DNA of 33,519 bases from Nitrospinaceae bacterium (GTDB taxonomy: Bacteria > Nitrospinota > Nitrospinia > Nitrospinales > Nitrospinaceae). The DNA lies in NCBI GenBank assembly GCA_028278405.1, contig JANQEK010000033.1, positions 1-33,519 on the forward strand, in the 5' to 3' direction. Positions 1 to 26,560 of this stretch are shown piece by piece; within the stretch, counting starts at the first letter, position 1; the number at the start of each line of letters is the position of its first letter. The translations under genes and the position numbers were made by a program. Under the pieces are notes generated by a model that did no database searches, was not told where the DNA came from, and saw only the letters and a list, made by a program, of their open reading frames with translations.

Positions 1-967
<967 letters not shown>

Positions 968-17322: not shown

Positions 17323-17671
17323 ACAGGTAGTCCTTTAGCGGATCGCCCTTCAAGCAACTCCCCTTTATCCATTGACTGACCCTCTTCAGCCTATTCCAAA
17401 AAGTCCTGAAAATGTTCTGATAGCCGAATTTTTGTGGCTTTGTGATGTTGATCGTGTGCCCGCCAGGTTTGCCAGAGGGTAGGGCTGACGCCTGCTCTTG
17501 CCAGGCAGGCCGTCGGAACGGCCACGACACCCCTAAATTTACGATTTAAAAGGATTCTCAGCCGAAAAATTTAAGCTTTTTGGACCAAAGAATAATGGAA
17601 ATATTTAAAAAACTTGTTATCCTAAAGTAACACTATTCCTTTTTTAACAATAGCTTGGAGTCTACCCCATC
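17323..17671. other. Intergenic region with GC-rich inverted repeats
   Basis: About 350 bases without a convincing gene. The middle (about 17455-17530) is GC-rich and hairpin-prone: GCCTGC (17490-17495) can pair with GCAGGC (17505-17510), and GGCCGT (17508-17513) pairs with ACGGCC (17518-17523) around a CGGA tetraloop. TTGCCAG occurs twice, 30 bases apart. The flanks are AT-rich; TTGGAC and TATTTA 16 bases apart near 17580-17608 could be the promoter of the next gene. The GC-rich block looks unlike its surroundings and could be a repetitive extragenic element. Confidence 0.5.
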
Positions 17672-19018
17672 ATGCCAGTGGCCCCTGTAAAATCGTCCCA
17701 GCGTCCGAAGCTGATGATTCGTCGCGGGAGAAAAGTGACGGAAGGAGTCGAGGTTCAAGCCGTATTTGCTGACATCCGAAGCGGTCAGTTGAAGCCCAAA
17801 CACGAATTCAGCACAGACGGTGTGAATTGGCGGCGTCTGGACAGCCACCCTCAATTGGCCAGAGTATTTGCCACTGTTCCTGAACCCGAAAAGAAAAAGA
17901 AAGGTCCGTTGATTTTTCTTTTACTGGTCATTGTGGCGGTGGTCGCAGCAGGTTTGTATTTTCATCCCTATCTGGCTTTTTACAATGTTCAAACTGCCGT
18001 GGATAGCCGCGATGTTCAAAAGCTGTCGGAATGGGTCGATTATTCCGGTTTGCAGCAGAATGTTAAGGATCAGTTGGATGTTCAATGGAATGAGATTTCC
18101 GCTTCCCAAATCAATGAGACTCCTTATGCCAAGATGGCCATCCCTGCAGGTAGAGTGCAGGTGGACAAAATGATTGGCGCTCTGGTAACTCCGGAAGCAG
18201 TGATGGGTTTTGCAAAGGGGAAAACCAGTCTGATCGATTCCTGGCAAAACGGAAGTCCTAAGACTCCCGCGGTAGAAGGAGAGGACCCATTTGCGGGTCT
18301 GGGATTCAACATGGAATCCGTCAACAAAGTAATGGACAGTGTGAACGGCGTGTTGTCTCAGGGGGAACTCCATTATTCAGGATTAAACTCATTCGTCGCG
18401 ACGATCAAAGCTGATAGTGGAGAGAGCTTTGATTTTATGTATGAGCGGGATGGGGTAGGCTGGAAATTAAGCGGGATAACCCTGCCTGCAGAGCCGGTTC
18501 GCTCTTCCATCGATAAAATTGCACAGTCCGTTCTCAAGGACGCTAAGGCCAAAGCCCGTAGAGCTGTCAAAAAGGGTAAGAAGGGCAAAGCCACCACAAA
18601 GAGCAAGGTATTAAAGGGTAAGACAAGCAAGAAAAAACCGCCTCAGGTTGCAAAACTCACAAATGAGAAGAAAGCCTATATGGCAAACCTGCAAATTAGA
18701 AATCTTGTAGTCGGAAAGGGAAAAAAATATCGCTTTGGCAGCCCCAATCCCGGCCTGTTTGCTACCTTGTCGAATAAAGGCAATCGGACCTTGAACCAGG
18801 TGGAGATCACAATCTACTTTTACAATCGAAAGGGAGCCATTGTCAGCGAAAAGAAGCTGTACCCTGTGTCGGTATCGAAATATCGCCCCGGGCGTGATAA
18901 CGATCCCTTAAAACCCCAAAAAGCAAAGAAAATTGGATACCTTGTCAAAGAGTTTGCTCCTCCCTCATGGGCCGGAAAGGTGCAGATGAGGGTCACCGAC
19001 ATTACATTCAAGAACTAG
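17672..19018 (+). CDS. Membrane-anchored DUF2939-like protein
   Basis: A 448-residue protein. Residues 1-70 resemble a GYF_2-like domain (strands around IRSGQLKPKHEFSTDGVNWRRL). A single transmembrane helix follows a KKKK stretch at residues 79-97. After it, PYLAFYNVQTAVDSRDVQKLSEWVDY begins a DUF2939-like domain, which continues to about residue 275. A Lys-rich low-complexity linker (about 285-330) leads to a C-terminal beta domain (about 335-448) resembling FxLYD or DUF-type strands. The N-terminus is cytoplasmic and the rest is probably periplasmic. No known function; it may be a sensor-like or stress-related envelope protein. It stands alone. Confidence 0.75.
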   Translation: MPVAPVKSSQRPKLMIRRGRKVTEGVEVQAVFADIRSGQLKPKHEFSTDGVNWRRLDSHPQLARVFATVPEPEKKKKGPLIFLLLVIVAVVAAGLYFHPYLAFYNVQTAVDSRDVQKLSEWVDYSGLQQNVKDQLDVQWNEISASQINETPYAKMAIPAGRVQVDKMIGALVTPEAVMGFAKGKTSLIDSWQNGSPKTPAVEGEDPFAGLGFNMESVNKVMDSVNGVLSQGELHYSGLNSFVATIKADSGESFDFMYERDGVGWKLSGITLPAEPVRSSIDKIAQSVLKDAKAKARRAVKKGKKGKATTKSKVLKGKTSKKKPPQVAKLTNEKKAYMANLQIRNLVVGKGKKYRFGSPNPGLFATLSNKGNRTLNQVEITIYFYNRKGAIVSEKKLYPVSVSKYRPGRDNDPLKPQKAKKIGYLVKEFAPPSWAGKVQMRVTDITFKN

Positions 19019-19115
19019 CAGTCGGCCCTCTTTCCAGTATATATTTTGATACAATAGTCCTAATCATACGATACAGATTTCCTCAATGGGTTTCCGTTGG
19101 GGCGAAAGGAATTTA

Positions 19116-20303
19116 ATGAGTTTGACGGAGCGAAAAATTAAATATTTGGAGCCGGGTAAAGGCCGTCAGATTATTTGGGATAACGGCGGGTTTGGTGTTC
19201 AAGTGACTCCCGATGGAGAAAAAAGTTTTGTCCTGGAATATAAATTCAGTGAAATGACCAAGCTGATTACTCTTGGGACCTATCCGAAGATGAGTCTTGA
19301 TACCGCAAGACAACAGGCTCTGAAAGCCATGGAAATGGTCATGAAGGGGAAGGATCCCGAGGAGAAGGGGATTCCCGAGCCGGAAACAAGCGAGGATGAG
19401 AGTCCTGCAAGTCAAACGCCGACTTTCGATCAGATTAGAGAAAAGGCTACTGAGAAACTGGATCAGTTTAAAGGGAAAGCCTCCGAGCAGTTGGACAAGA
19501 TCAAGTCTTCCGACGCGCTGGATAAATTTAAGGAAAAGGCGACTGCTAAGCTGGATGAAATCAAGCAAAGAGTTGAAAAAAAGGTAACACACCCCCATGC
19601 AGAGGAAAAACCCGGCGGGAAAGTTATACTGCTGGACAAAAAAGCAAGAGTTGCGAAGGAGAAATCGAAACCCAAAAAGGAAAAAGCCAAAGCTCCAGCA
19701 AAAAAAGAAGAGCCGAAAACCCTGAAGGATTCGTTTGGCTACACTCTAAACAAAAATGAGCTCAAGACACTATGGTCCGGTTTGGAAAATTCGGACATGC
19801 CTCCCGCAAATCAGTTGGCCTTAAAACTAATGATAGTCACTGGGCAAAGATACCAAGAGGTTCTTCCAGCGAGGTGGGCGGATTTTGATTTAGTGTCCAA
19901 ATGGTGGACCATACCTGCAGATTTTACCAAGAACGGGAAAAAACATAAGGTCCCGTTAACCAACCTGGCTTCGGATCTTTTGAGAAAGATTAAAGAATTA
20001 TCGGGAATGTCCGGGGTTTTGTTCCCGATTCCAGGTGGTGCGACTCCTATAGAATCCAAGACCTTGTCTGAGGGGCTTCTCCGGGCTCAGGTCCGATTTG
20101 GGTTGAAGTTGTTTACCCTGCAGGATTTACAGGATAGCGTGGTGTGTCAGATGCTCGATAGCGGGGTCACGGAGTCTACCTTGTATAAGCTTTTGAATGA
20201 AGACGAGCCCACCGTGTTTGGACAGGAAGGTGGTAAAGTTAAAGACTCCGATATGCGTAAGGCTCTTGAGAAAATAGAAAAACTCCTGCCTAAGAGTTAT
20301 TAG
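19116..20303 (+). CDS. Tyrosine-recombinase-like protein lacking catalytic residues, with helical insert
   Basis: A 395-residue protein. Residues 1-90 match the P4-type integrase arm-binding domain (LTERKIKYLEPGK, GFGVQVTPDGEKSFVLEYK, TLGTYPKMSLDTARQQA). Residues about 103-156 are an amphipathic helical repeat with recurring KATxKLDxFKxK units, then a Lys-rich stretch. The catalytic-type domain begins near 205. Arg245 (TGQRYQEV) and the KNGKKHKVP lysines remain, but the usual HxxR is Q336-x2-Q339, the LNH histidine is Glu362 and no tyrosine nucleophile is in place. It is therefore probably not an active integrase but a DNA-binding derivative. ATG 19116 has GAAAGGA upstream; an in-frame ATG at 19086 is less likely. 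No tRNA or attachment repeats flank it. Confidence 0.78.
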   Translation: MSLTERKIKYLEPGKGRQIIWDNGGFGVQVTPDGEKSFVLEYKFSEMTKLITLGTYPKMSLDTARQQALKAMEMVMKGKDPEEKGIPEPETSEDESPASQTPTFDQIREKATEKLDQFKGKASEQLDKIKSSDALDKFKEKATAKLDEIKQRVEKKVTHPHAEEKPGGKVILLDKKARVAKEKSKPKKEKAKAPAKKEEPKTLKDSFGYTLNKNELKTLWSGLENSDMPPANQLALKLMIVTGQRYQEVLPARWADFDLVSKWWTIPADFTKNGKKHKVPLTNLASDLLRKIKELSGMSGVLFPIPGGATPIESKTLSEGLLRAQVRFGLKLFTLQDLQDSVVCQMLDSGVTESTLYKLLNEDEPTVFGQEGGKVKDSDMRKALEKIEKLLPKSY

Positions 20304-20335
20304 AACAAGATTGTTTAAATATATTTGAGGAAATT

Positions 20336-20373
20336 AAAAAAGGCTCCTCAGGGTTTTCTGAGAAGCCTTTTTT
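20336..20373. terminator. Bidirectional intrinsic terminator between the integrase-like and LRR genes
   Basis: AAAAAGGCT-C-CTCAG (20336-20351) pairs with CTGAG-A-AGCCTTTTT (20358-20373) around a six-base loop, with one mismatch. A run of A before and T after the core allows termination in both directions; the two genes converge here. Confidence 0.9.
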
Positions 20374-20402
20374 AGTTGGAAAACTACAGAAAAGCTGGCG
20401 GT

Positions 20403-20963
20403 TTATAAGTGACCGCTGGTTTTGACCTGGAAGCCTTCGACCTTATCGAGCAGGAGTTGTTTGAGCTCCATTATCCGGGCGGCTTCCATCAAGGCATTTT
20501 TTCCCTCATCTTTGATCTTGTTAAGACGCATATCGAGACGCGCCAGATTGGTGAATAATGGCAGGAACTTTGCCAGATGTTTCGCGCCCTCGTCCGTGAT
20601 GTTGTTGTCGGATAAGGTCAAGCTGGTGAGGCTGAGCAGATTGTCGGATACCGCCAGATACTTAACGCCTTCGTTACCGATCGCATTGTAAAACAGGTTG
20701 AGCGATTTCAGGTTGACCAGACACTTGGACTGGGCAATGTACTTGGCGCCTCTGGGCCCCATCATGTTGGTGCCCAATTCCAGAGTTTGCAAATCCTGGA
20801 GAAAATCCATATTGGCAATATCCTTTGCGCCGTATTCTTTGAGATACGCAGCGGTCAGGTCGAGAGTTTTCCCGTCCTTGCTGATCTCGGACTTGACCAA
20901 GGCCACGGATTCCTCGAATCCCCGGTTTTGGCCTCTGGCTTCCTTATTTAATGAAGTATCCAT
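20403..20963 (-). CDS. Leucine-rich-repeat protein (ribonuclease-inhibitor type)
   Basis: A 186-residue soluble protein with at least four RI-type leucine-rich repeats of about 28 residues between residues 35 and 170. Each has an LxxLxLxxNxIxxEGAKxLA core, for instance LTSLTLSDNNITDEGAKHLA. There is no signal peptide or membrane segment. These repeats form a curved solenoid for protein binding; eukaryote-like RI repeats occur sporadically in bacteria. The upstream GGAGG is the likely ribosome site, about 12 bases before the ATG. It converges on the integrase-like gene across the shared terminator. The partner is unknown. Confidence 0.88.
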   Translation of the reverse strand: MDTSLNKEARGQNRGFEESVALVKSEISKDGKTLDLTAAYLKEYGAKDIANMDFLQDLQTLELGTNMMGPRGAKYIAQSKCLVNLKSLNLFYNAIGNEGVKYLAVSDNLLSLTSLTLSDNNITDEGAKHLAKFLPLFTNLARLDMRLNKIKDEGKNALMEAARIMELKQLLLDKVEGFQVKTSGHL

Positions 20964-23489: not shown

Positions 23490-24776
23490 TTATTGCAAAG
23501 CGGCGAGATTTTTTCTGATGGTTACTATCCACGCGCGGGCAGCTTCCTTTTCTACTGGGGTGAAGCCGGGAAGCTGAATCATGGTTTCAACGCCTTTTAT
23601 TTTTTGATTCACGTATTCCGCAAAGGCTTGCGGGTTGTCGGCGGCAAGTCGTATTTCACCCGCGCCATCCAGGAATCTCTTTTTTAAATAATGAAAGTAC
23701 AAAGCGAGGCGCTGAGACGGATCCTTCGGACCTTTGCCATACTGCAGATGCATTAGAGCTTCTTTACGCCGATCAATAATGTAACCCAGCCGTGTGTTAT
23801 CGTCTTTGTTGAATTGAAGGTCGAATACACCAAACGCCCAGTCCTTTGCTTCTTCACTCACTTTCAATTGTGGAAGAGGGAGGTGTTTGACTGCGGCAAT
23901 TTCCAATAGTAAGGACCGTACTCCGGTGCGGTCGCTCCAGTAGGCTGCTTGTAAGGGGATGTCACGATTCAATCGGCTGACTTCTGCAAGAACGGGTTCC
24001 ATTTTGGCGATGGCCTCCGACAACCTCTGCAGCGTGGCCTCATCAAATTCATTGAGAAACCATTGTGTTTCCCTAGGCACATTCGATTTCTCCCGAATAT
24101 TCCTTTTGAAATATGCATTAAGAATCTGGGTCATGTCCGGTATAAAAAACGCTTCCAGGACTTTTTCAAAATACGGGAAATTCAGGATCAAAAACTGAGG
24201 GTCGGACCGGATATTCAGTCCATAAGCTTCCAGTTCGTTGACGTGGCCCAGGAAGGATTGTGTGAGGTGCAGTGTCTCATGGAGATGGGTTGCTTCTCCG
24301 TAGACTTTAGAGTCGATCAGGATACTTCCGGGAGAAATACGGATAGTGTCGAACGTGGCGTGCGCCAACTGACCGGGTTGGAGCAGAGCATCGGAATAGG
24401 GTTGAATAATGTATTGGCGTAGCGGTACGGGACGGTTTCCGGGTAGGGTTTCCTTCAAGCGGCCCAGCACGCGCTTCATGCGCCCCGCTGCCTTTTGAAC
24501 CAGTTGTTCCGGCTGGTGGCATTTTCCGCAATCGTAATTCTCAAATCCGGGGATCAGGAAGGTTGTGATGCCGGATCCATCCACCGGTTGCCGCGCGACA
24601 TAGTTTTTCAGTGTTCTGCCCGTCAGGCCGGGGTCTTGCTTGGGGAGATGTTGGGAAACCAGGGAATCGAGCTCGCCAAGTCCGATTCGAGGCTCTTCGG
24701 CCAGCAGTTGACCGGACCCTCCCAGCCACAGGGCTATCGTGAGCGTGATCCAGGCCCTCTGTTTGGGCCTGAGCAT
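23490..24776 (-). CDS. Periplasmic protein with one heme c site and an HExxH zinc-protease motif
   Basis: A 428-residue protein with a signal peptide (cleavage near LLA-EE, residue 26). One heme c motif, C83-GKC-H87, lies in an otherwise undefined domain. A zincin motif follows: H166-E167-TL-H170, in EATHLHETLHLTQ, with a glutamate-rich NELEAYG segment at residues 180-186 that can supply the third ligand. The rest (about 190-428) is helical and unfamiliar. It is translated directly after the diheme/ethylbenzene-dehydrogenase-domain gene: the last base of that gene's TGA is the first base of this ATG. The tie suggests a shared periplasmic complex, perhaps a maturation or assembly protease. I know no named family that combines both motifs. 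Confidence 0.72.
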   Translation of the reverse strand: MLRPKQRAWITLTIALWLGGSGQLLAEEPRIGLGELDSLVSQHLPKQDPGLTGRTLKNYVARQPVDGSGITTFLIPGFENYDCGKCHQPEQLVQKAAGRMKRVLGRLKETLPGNRPVPLRQYIIQPYSDALLQPGQLAHATFDTIRISPGSILIDSKVYGEATHLHETLHLTQSFLGHVNELEAYGLNIRSDPQFLILNFPYFEKVLEAFFIPDMTQILNAYFKRNIREKSNVPRETQWFLNEFDEATLQRLSEAIAKMEPVLAEVSRLNRDIPLQAAYWSDRTGVRSLLLEIAAVKHLPLPQLKVSEEAKDWAFGVFDLQFNKDDNTRLGYIIDRRKEALMHLQYGKGPKDPSQRLALYFHYLKKRFLDGAGEIRLAADNPQAFAEYVNQKIKGVETMIQLPGFTPVEKEAARAWIVTIRKNLAALQ

Positions 24777-26560
24777 CAGCCCCCCTTGGCGGTGGACGGT
24801 GCTCGCATAATATTGAGTCTCTGCCAGACGCTGACGACCTTGCGTCCATTGCGGTCTTCTTTTTTACCGTCCCACACGGCAAAGGCGACCAGGAGAGGTT
24901 CCTTTTTATCAAAGATGGCGTCCCACTTCCCGGATACCGCGAAAGTGCGGGTGAACACCACCGTCCATTCCCCGTCTTTCCAGACGCCGGTTCCTTCTAC
25001 ATTCTGGTATTCCCGGGGTTGGGGTGTGATGGAGCCGAATCCCTCCGAGTTCAGTTCCTCCACCGAGTTTTCCTGGGTGGTGCCCAGTTTGGTTACGGGG
25101 TTGGACATGACGCCGCCGAAGATGAGCGCGTCCATATCGACTCCGCCGGTGGAGTATTCGGAATCCTCTGAGGCTTCCAGCGTTTCCTCGAGGCCGGCTT
25201 TCCAGTGCCAGATATTGACCGGCTTCCCGCGGTTACCCATCCCAAAAAACGGTTCGTTGTGACCATGGGTATGCAGGGTGACGTCTCCAAGGGCCAACTG
25301 AACGGCGACGCCGTCGGTGAACACGTCGGCCCGGCCCTCAACAAACCCATCTTTGGACGGGTCCTTCCACTTGAGGCGAACGGCCAGAACTTCGCCGTTG
25401 TTGACAGAAGTGACGTTGATGATTTCAATAGCTCCCCGGCGTGCAGACAGGGGCCGTAAAACCAGATTGGTGGACTTGACGTCTTTCCAGACGGGGCTTT
25501 CGGGATTGGTATCCAGTTCGTAAGGAACGTTGTAGGACATTATATCGGTTTCAAATTCCCCTTTCTGGAAACCCTTTCTGAAATTGGAACGGATATAGTG
25601 CACCAATGCCCAGCGGTCGTTTTCAGAAAGATGAGCGTAGGAATTCATCGGGGTGCCGTCCAGCCCGGTAGAAATTGTCCGGAATATGTCCTTCGGCTCA
25701 TGTCCGGCTTTGTAGTAGTTGGGATTTGTAATGTCATGAACAAACACCGCATGTTTCCAGGCGTCCATCAATGATTCAGCGAGACGTCCGTCACCTCGTC
25801 CGGAAACTCCATGACAGTCCACACATTTATGCTTTACGTATAGTTTCTTGCCCTGGGCGATCAATGTCTTGGAACTGGGAACAGTCTTGATGGACAAACT
25901 TTTCCCCGGAGCTTCGGTACGAAAGCGATCGGAAAAACTCTTGATCAGGTTGACCAGTGCCCAGGTATCTTGTGGAGAGAGAGCATCGCCCCAGGCAGGC
26001 ATCGAAGTTCCCGGCACACCGCGGATAATCGTACGGTACAGGTCCTCATCTTTCGGAAGTGTTCCTGTCGGGGTGGAGCGAAATTTGAAGATACCTTTGC
26101 GAAAATCGCGCGGCCAGGGATACAGATAGTCGGTTGCCGTGCCGCCACCGTTGCCGTCCCGTCCATGACAGTAGACACACATATGAAGGTAAATATTGCG
26201 GCCGCGGTTTAACAAGGCCTGCGCTTTGGATTTTGGTCTCTGCAGATTGCCCATGTCATGCGATCCGCGCTTGAGAAATGGATCGGATCCCATGTCATGA
26301 TTCATATGGCCCATGTCGTGCTGGCTGTGGTCCATACCTTTGGAAGGAGTTTCCTGCATGTACTCAGAGCCGGGTGCGGATTTTTCCCCGAATTCGATCA
26401 TGCCTTCGGGTTTGGCGGGCAGTTTTTCAAGATCGTGCTTATGCTTTTCCTGTCCGTGAGAAAAAACAAGATCGGGGGTACTCCATATCAAGGCGAGGGC
26501 GGCCAACAATACTAAACTGGCAACGCTTCCTCCGAGTGAGAGTTTTATTTTACTGTTCAT
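24776..26560 (-). CDS. Diheme cytochrome c with ethylbenzene-dehydrogenase-type heme domain (NxrC-like)
   Basis: A 594-residue exported protein: an N-terminal hydrophobic signal or anchor (about residues 10-30), then a His/Met-rich linker (about 72-104, repeats of MDHSQHDMGH type). Two cytochrome c domains follow with C128-VYC-H132 and C246-VDC-H250, and likely axial methionines M187 (GTSMPAW) and M305 (GTPMNSY). The C-terminal part (about 355-590) matches ethylbenzene dehydrogenase gamma-type heme-b domains (WKD, DGVAVQLAL, WHWKAG, VVFTRTF, VAFAVWDG). Such domains are gamma subunits of DMSO-reductase-family enzymes, including nitrite oxidoreductase NxrC. It would carry electrons in the periplasm. 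ACGAGGTG is the ribosome site. No molybdoenzyme catalytic subunit lies in the window, so the partner is unknown. Confidence 0.88.
   Translation of the reverse strand: MNSKIKLSLGGSVASLVLLAALALIWSTPDLVFSHGQEKHKHDLEKLPAKPEGMIEFGEKSAPGSEYMQETPSKGMDHSQHDMGHMNHDMGSDPFLKRGSHDMGNLQRPKSKAQALLNRGRNIYLHMCVYCHGRDGNGGGTATDYLYPWPRDFRKGIFKFRSTPTGTLPKDEDLYRTIIRGVPGTSMPAWGDALSPQDTWALVNLIKSFSDRFRTEAPGKSLSIKTVPSSKTLIAQGKKLYVKHKCVDCHGVSGRGDGRLAESLMDAWKHAVFVHDITNPNYYKAGHEPKDIFRTISTGLDGTPMNSYAHLSENDRWALVHYIRSNFRKGFQKGEFETDIMSYNVPYELDTNPESPVWKDVKSTNLVLRPLSARRGAIEIINVTSVNNGEVLAVRLKWKDPSKDGFVEGRADVFTDGVAVQLALGDVTLHTHGHNEPFFGMGNRGKPVNIWHWKAGLEETLEASEDSEYSTGGVDMDALIFGGVMSNPVTKLGTTQENSVEELNSEGFGSITPQPREYQNVEGTGVWKDGEWTVVFTRTFAVSGKWDAIFDKKEPLLVAFAVWDGKKEDRNGRKVVSVWQRLNIMRAPSTAKGG

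What the first reader, a model, noticed from the sequence alone, without database searches (positions are those of the whole stretch)
19116..20303. Domesticated integrase: arm-binding domain kept, catalysis lost, helical repeat inserted
The arm-binding domain and the Arg-I/Lys segments are recognisable, but the HxxR, the second histidine and the tyrosine are replaced. A repeat of KATxKLDxFKxK-type units plus a Lys-rich stretch separates the halves. No attachment repeats or cargo are visible. This looks like an integrase turned into a DNA-organising or regulatory protein.
Basis: partly seen in the sequence, partly recalled or inferred. Interest (0 to 1): 0.6.

Follow-up and report, generated by a model that had tools for sequence, protein, structure and literature searches.

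The report
Dead phage integrase kept by host
A gene that once let a mobile element insert itself into DNA has lost its cutting chemistry and its core-DNA-gripping domain, gained a repeated helical segment, and has been kept under selection by a group of bacteria (Nitrospinaceae), most likely as a regulatory protein.

Summary
The ORF 19116-20303 (395 aa) is a P4-type tyrosine integrase: arm domain PF13356 and catalytic-domain fold intact, catalytic set destroyed (window R-K-Q-Q-E-E where active relatives have R-K-H-R-H-Y). It is not a one-off pseudogene. Full-length, stop-free orthologs occur in five further genomes of the same Nitrospinaceae genus, all lacking Arg-II, His-III and Tyr, behind the same gene, with dN/dS about 0.14. 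The core-binding domain has been replaced by 11/20-residue helical repeats, conserved in all six; the Lys-rich stretch is not. The gene appears to form an operon with a membrane DUF2939 protein; the pair was not found in sister genera. So 'domesticated, catalysis lost' is strongly supported. 'DNA-organising' is not: arm and catalytic domains have lost most of their net positive charge. The best mechanism is a non-catalytic regulator resembling MrpR, the SPbeta repressor with a dead tyrosine-recombinase fold, but DNA binding is unproven and a protein-binding scaffold is the serious rival. A second dead-integrase lineage (arm lost, core-binding domain kept, H to N, Tyr lost) sits at another conserved locus in a sister family, so such domestication probably happened twice in this phylum.

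The parts
17594..17662 (+). Conserved promoter/leader block of the putative DUF2939-pseudointegrase operon
   Evidence: 87-93% identical in six other genomes of the genus, one strong match per genome; matched fraction of the 75 bp upstream 0.85, against 0.64 directly upstream of the pseudointegrase. Not unusually high: gene 26612 upstream 0.89
17672..19018 (+). Membrane protein with DUF2939, directly upstream; probable co-transcribed partner
   Evidence: PF11159 E=2.2e-16; full-length orthologs in exactly the same six genomes as the pseudointegrase, only N-terminal domain hits in sister genera; dN/dS 0.10-0.22. Co-transcription is inferred
19104..19110 (+). Shine-Dalgarno-like GAAAGGA, supports ATG at 19116
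   Evidence: Conserved with the start codon in six orthologs
19116..20303 (+). Catalytically dead P4-type integrase, 395 aa (whole CDS)
19122..19370 (+). Arm DNA-binding domain (residues 3-85), fold kept, basic residues reduced
   Evidence: PF13356 1.2e-16; 3ju0 Z 14.9, 3jtz Z 13.1; K12->E, R29->Q, R35->E, kept K9 R17 K36 K/R43 K49
19422..19586 (+). Helical repeat module (residues 103-157) in place of the core-binding domain
   Evidence: Lags 11/20/31, 0 of 2000 shuffles; helices 104-131 and 134-157 at pLDDT about 50-74; PF22022 absent in all six orthologs
19587..19730 (+). Variable, partly Lys-rich linker (residues 158-205)
   Evidence: dN/dS 0.37 (residues 161-205) and indels between orthologs; pLDDT below 50 for most of it
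19731..20300 (+). Degenerate tyrosine-recombinase catalytic domain (residues 206-395)
   Evidence: PF00589 1.4e-11; XerA-type 4a8e Z 18.8, rmsd 2.5 over 171 residues
19848..19850 (+). Arg-I codon, R245, invariant
19929..19931 (+). beta-hairpin Lys position, K272; K/I/K/L/K/R among orthologs
20121..20132 (+). HxxR motif replaced by Q-D-L-Q (Q336, Q339); Arg-II is Gln in all six
20199..20201 (+). His-III position, E362 (E or Q in all six)
20226..20228 (+). Position of the nucleophilic Tyr in active relatives; E371 here, no Tyr in any ortholog
20332..20377 (.). Probable shared terminator between the pseudointegrase and the convergent LRR gene
   Evidence: Inverted repeat I2, 20 nt arms, 90% complementary, T-rich ends

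Best explanation
A P4-type integrase from a former mobile element was captured on the stem of one Nitrospinaceae genus, lost the recombination chemistry and the core-binding domain, gained a short helical repeat, and is now a vertically inherited host protein apparently made from one operon with a DUF2939 membrane protein. Most likely it works without cutting DNA: the arm domain, and perhaps the catalytic-fold domain, recognises a DNA site, and the helical module and C-terminal fold join protomers or a partner, so that it acts as a regulator in the way MrpR does for SPbeta. Shown: homology, loss of catalytic residues, core-binding domain replacement, conservation of locus, selection, reduced basic charge. 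Inferred: co-transcription, DNA binding, partner role, regulation. Confidence is about 0.95 for 'domesticated and catalytically dead' and about 0.45 for the DNA-binding regulator mechanism; the figure below is for the whole statement.
For: Six full-length orthologs without stops, the five others 60-77% identical to the window protein. Arg-II, His-III and Tyr lost in all six while 17 of 17 complete comparators are intact. dN/dS: arm 0.10, helical 0.14, catalytic domain 0.12, linker 0.37. Conserved order DUF2939 - pseudointegrase in six genomes, with the LRR gene and nuoB following in five. Two genomes of the sister genus have LRR next to nuoB without the pair. Monophyletic, support 100/100, long stem (1.13), among phylum P4-type integrases. 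Arm fold and some arm basics (K9, R17, K36, K/R43, K49) kept. A dead YR-fold repressor with a known DNA site exists: MrpR; its structure (8bj6) and the phi3T repressor SroF (9rgl, 9rd5) appear among the fold matches at Z 11-12.
Against: Net charge of the arm domain falls from +4..+12 in active relatives to -2..+2, with R29->Q and K12->E fixed; catalytic domain from a mean of +6.7 to +1.5, which argues against strong DNA binding. No binding site was identified: the TTGTTA/TAACAA inverted hexamer in the conserved leader is of a size expected by chance in 69 AT-rich bases (my estimate), and the leader conservation is matched by other genes. No expression or binding data exist.
Confidence: 0.45

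Rival explanations
1. Protein-binding scaffold: the integrase fold no longer binds DNA; arm and catalytic domains were reused as interaction surfaces, with the helical module as spacer or oligomeriser, working with the co-encoded DUF2939 membrane protein.
For: Loss of basic charge in both DNA-binding domains; lineage-restricted partner gene with identical distribution; hendecad-like helices.
Against: Both DNA-binding folds and several arm basics are kept under selection; no interaction data.
Confidence: 0.27
2. Antagonist of mobile elements: occupies arm sites of, or forms dead mixed complexes with, related active integrases and so blocks integration or excision.
For: A related active P4-type integrase (about 40% identity in the catalytic domain) is in the same genome; inactive protomers can affect integrase complexes (general knowledge).
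Against: Two genomes at least 95% complete (G007, G009) carry the gene but no other match to it at E<=1e-5; core-binding domain lost; arm basic residues changed.
Confidence: 0.12
3. Nucleoid-organising (chromatin-like) protein.
For: Lys-rich linker and helical module in the window.
Against: Lys-rich stretch absent or replaced in some orthologs, helical module nearly charge-balanced, low net charge of both folded domains.
Confidence: 0.07
4. Decaying integrase pseudogene without function.
For: Catalytic residues lost; long stem branch.
Against: Open in six genomes with near-saturated synonymous sites, dN/dS about 0.14, conserved locus.
Confidence: 0.03
5. Still an active recombinase using another nucleophile (for example invariant Y357 or Y395).
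For: Y357 and Y395 are invariant in the six orthologs.
Against: Arg-II is Gln and His-III is Glu/Gln in all six, Lys and His-II drift; no core-binding domain.
Confidence: 0.02

Closest known systems
MrpR (YopR), master repressor of Bacillus prophage SPbeta (PDB 8A0A, 8bj6; PMC10516654)
   Same: Tyrosine-recombinase fold, most catalytic residues replaced, recombinase function lost, kept for another function; fold match Z 10.8
   Different: MrpR keeps a core-binding domain and its Tyr, has no arm domain, is phage-borne and has a known DNA site (SPBRE). Here: arm domain kept, core-binding domain replaced by helices, Tyr lost, Arg-I kept, chromosomal in Nitrospinaceae
SroF, repressor of phage phi3T (PDB 9rgl, 9rd5)
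   Same: YR-like fold used as a repressor; Z 11-12 to the catalytic-domain model
   Different: Phage protein; match covers the catalytic domain only; nothing beyond the PDB titles was read
P4-type tyrosine integrases (PF13356 arm + PF22022 core-binding + PF00589 catalytic), e.g. HPI and HAI7 integrases (3jtz, 3ju0) and the active copy in this genome (contig C10)
   Same: Arm domain 35-36% identical, rmsd 0.9-1.2; catalytic domain about 40% identical to the resident active copy
   Different: Catalytic set and Tyr lost, core-binding domain absent, basic charge reduced, no element around it

Membership tests
P4-type tyrosine integrase (active) | N-terminal arm domain PF13356 | tested here: met
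   E=1.2e-16; 3ju0 Z 14.9
P4-type tyrosine integrase (active) | Core-binding domain (PF22022) | tested here: not met
   Present in active relatives, absent in all six orthologs
P4-type tyrosine integrase (active) | Catalytic-domain fold PF00589 | tested here: met
   E=1.4e-11; 4a8e Z 18.8
P4-type tyrosine integrase (active) | Catalytic R-K-H-R-H and nucleophilic Tyr | tested here: not met
   R-K-Q-Q-E and no Tyr; Arg-II, His-III and Tyr lost in all six
P4-type tyrosine integrase (active) | Lies in a mobile element with attachment repeats | tested here: not met
   No long flanking direct repeats, same chromosomal locus in five genomes
MrpR-like dead-YR repressor | YR fold with lost catalytic residues | tested here: met
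MrpR-like dead-YR repressor | Core-binding plus catalytic domain layout | tested here: not met
   Core-binding domain absent, arm domain present
MrpR-like dead-YR repressor | Specific DNA binding and repression | not testable with these tools
   Needs EMSA/ChIP
MrpR-like dead-YR repressor | Encoded in an SPbeta-like prophage | tested here: not met
   Chromosomal locus conserved across the genus, surrounded by ordinary chromosomal genes
Apolipoprotein A1/A4/E (PF01442) | Score above Pfam cut-off | tested here: not met
   21.9 bits against cut-off 90; only the repeat period resembles it

The most novel reading that the evidence does not exclude
An integrase whose arm and catalytic folds have been stripped of DNA-binding charge and reused, with an 11/20-residue helical repeat, as a membrane-coupled signalling or scaffold protein with a DUF2939 partner; and integrase domestication has happened at least twice independently in Nitrospinota by opposite domain losses.
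Probability: 0.2. Interest if true: 0.7.

Novelty: new variant of a known kind. Interest (0 to 1): 0.5.

Why it matters
Dead tyrosine recombinases turned into regulators are known from phage repressors such as MrpR, whose authors expected the theme to be wider (PMC10516654). Here is a chromosomal, vertically inherited case with a different architecture (arm domain kept, core-binding domain replaced) plus a second lineage with the opposite loss. It gives a way to find more: integrase-annotated genes at fixed loci, without Arg-II and Tyr, under purifying selection. Automatic annotation would probably call such genes integrases, which would mislead counts of mobile elements.

Tried and rejected
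Direct repeats or att-like ends around the gene: only short chance-like pairs. Arm-site-like repeats near the resident active integrase, or repeats shared with the conserved leader: none beyond 9-mers. RNA structure in the leader: not more stable than shuffles, z +1.3; no Rfam match there. Conserved leader as evidence of a special site: rejected by the control, other genes are as conserved. Amphipathicity of the helical module: 112 of 2000 shuffles as high, not convincing. Second copy of the helical module in the genome: none. Relatives of the dead family in viral contigs: none; phage and plasmid matches are all under 60% identity (about 22-27% in the rows shown), and those rows are annotated as ordinary integrases or carry no annotation. 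A scan of the bacterial genome collection with the single protein returned only the near relative JAHELC010000019.1, but that scan reaches close relatives only. A structure model from the six orthologs alone was poor, mean pLDDT 51, so the packing of the helices is unknown. One shared origin of the two dead lineages is not rejected by the AU test (p 0.22), but different locus, different domain loss and different substitutions favour two events. Paper searches for catalytically dead phage-type integrases turned up only MrpR; only part of the literature is held.

Full report
What is there. The ORF at 19116-20303 (+) encodes 395 residues. Its start is supported by a GAAAGGA-ATG region conserved in all orthologs. 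Pfam finds the arm DNA-binding domain PF13356 (residues 3-83, E=1.2e-16) and the tyrosine-recombinase domain PF00589 (residues 211-361, E=1.4e-11), with only a weak, sub-threshold apolipoprotein-like match in the middle. PHROGs places it with phage integrases.

Catalytic residues. In an alignment of 27 related proteins, 17 of 17 comparators with a complete catalytic domain have R-K-H-R-H-Y. The window protein has R245, K272, Q336, Q339, E362 and no Tyr. Among six orthologs Arg-I is invariant, Lys drifts (K/I/K/L/K/R), His-II drifts (Q/Q/H/G/H/E), Arg-II is Gln in all, His-III is Glu or Gln in all, and Tyr is lost in all.

Not a pseudogene. Full-length orthologs without stops occur in G005, G006, G007 (public contig JAHELC010000019.1, Nitrospinaceae bacterium Ww603), G009 and G010, all of the same genus. 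A seventh genome (G008, 72% complete) has the operon leader and the first codons of the upstream gene at a contig end. Nei-Gojobori dN/dS is about 0.14 over the whole gene, 0.10 for the arm domain, 0.14 for the helical module, 0.12 for the catalytic domain and 0.37 for the linker; synonymous sites are near saturation, so these are rough. Neighbouring host genes give 0.02 to 0.22.

Locus. The order DUF2939 protein, pseudointegrase is kept in all six genomes, with the pentapeptide-repeat gene upstream where the contig reaches, and the convergent LRR gene and nuoB next in five genomes. In G006 the LRR gene and nuoB are on another contig and no LRR gene follows within 1.7 kb. In the sister genus (G001, G002) LRR and nuoB are adjacent without the pair. 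DUF2939 full-length orthologs occur in the same six genomes and were not found elsewhere in the family. The 75 bp upstream of DUF2939 are well conserved (0.85) while those upstream of the pseudointegrase are not (0.64), which suggests one transcript; the control shows that such leader conservation is not exceptional.

Domain change. Active relatives carry the core-binding domain PF22022 between arm and catalytic domains; none of the six orthologs does. In its place is a module with self-similarity at lags 11, 20 and 31, above all of 2000 shuffles in each ortholog; G006 has one extra 20-residue unit. AlphaFold gives confident arm and catalytic domains and two helices (104-131, 134-157) of low to middling confidence. 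The Lys-rich stretch after it is variable and has no confident model.

Fold. The arm domain matches the HAI7 and HPI integrase arm domains (Z 14.9 and 13.1); the catalytic domain matches XerA, Brujita, Tn1549 and lambda integrases (Z about 15-19) and, lower, the phage repressors SroF and YopR/MrpR (Z 11-12).

Charge. Arm-domain net charge is -2..+2 in the six orthologs and +4..+12 in 18 other P4-type or related integrases; the catalytic domain averages +1.5 against +6.7. Orthologs are not independent samples, so the p-values are not to be taken at face value, but the shift is large and includes fixed changes (K12 to E, R29 to Q, R339 to Q). This weakens the DNA-organising reading and leaves DNA binding open.

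Origin. The six form one clade (100/100) on a long stem (1.13) among the P4-type integrases of the phylum. The same genome carries an ordinary active P4-type integrase on another contig.

A second dead lineage. In family f4, genus g12, proteins of about 300-340 aa at a locus beside CBS-domain, ACT-domain and FliG-like genes (names from my reading of the sequences) lack the arm domain, keep the core-binding domain, have N-D-L-R-R for H-D-L-R-R and no Tyr. Matches of this type occur in six genomes, one of them partial and with only the N-terminal half seen; dN/dS is 0.15-0.23. The AU test does not exclude a common origin with the window family.

Comparison. MrpR of SPbeta is the closest published case found: YR fold, lost recombinase function, DNA-binding repressor; its authors thought recruitment of recombinases as transcription factors may be more widespread (PMC10516654). 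The window protein works like it at most; it fails the layout test, having an arm domain and no core-binding domain.

Verdict. A domesticated, catalytically dead P4-type integrase under purifying selection (about 0.95). Function: regulator by DNA binding (about 0.45), protein scaffold (about 0.27), element antagonist (about 0.12), chromatin-like protein (about 0.07).

Noticed in passing
L036, L038, L039, L040, L042 (G035, G043, G040, G031, G032); partial in G041 (L102): A second dead-integrase lineage: no arm domain, core-binding domain kept, HDLRR to NDLRR, Tyr lost, conserved locus, dN/dS about 0.15-0.23.
   Followed up: partly
window 17672-19018: Lineage-restricted DUF2939 membrane protein with a Lys-rich stretch, directly upstream of the pseudointegrase in all six genomes.
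   Followed up: partly
window 20403-20963 (-): Small LRR protein; 25-47 LRR matches per genome across the family, a large expansion.
   Followed up: no
window 24776-26560 (-): Di-haem cytochrome c with an ethylbenzene-dehydrogenase-type haem domain, 82-90% identical across the genus; possibly a nitrite oxidoreductase gamma-like subunit.
   Followed up: no
window 1-967 (-): The contig begins inside a 16S rRNA gene, as expected for a repeat-broken assembly end.
   Followed up: no
G000 contig C10:34797-35963 (L002, L029): Ordinary, catalytically intact P4-type integrase in the same genome, with phage-like genes nearby by my reading.
   Followed up: partly
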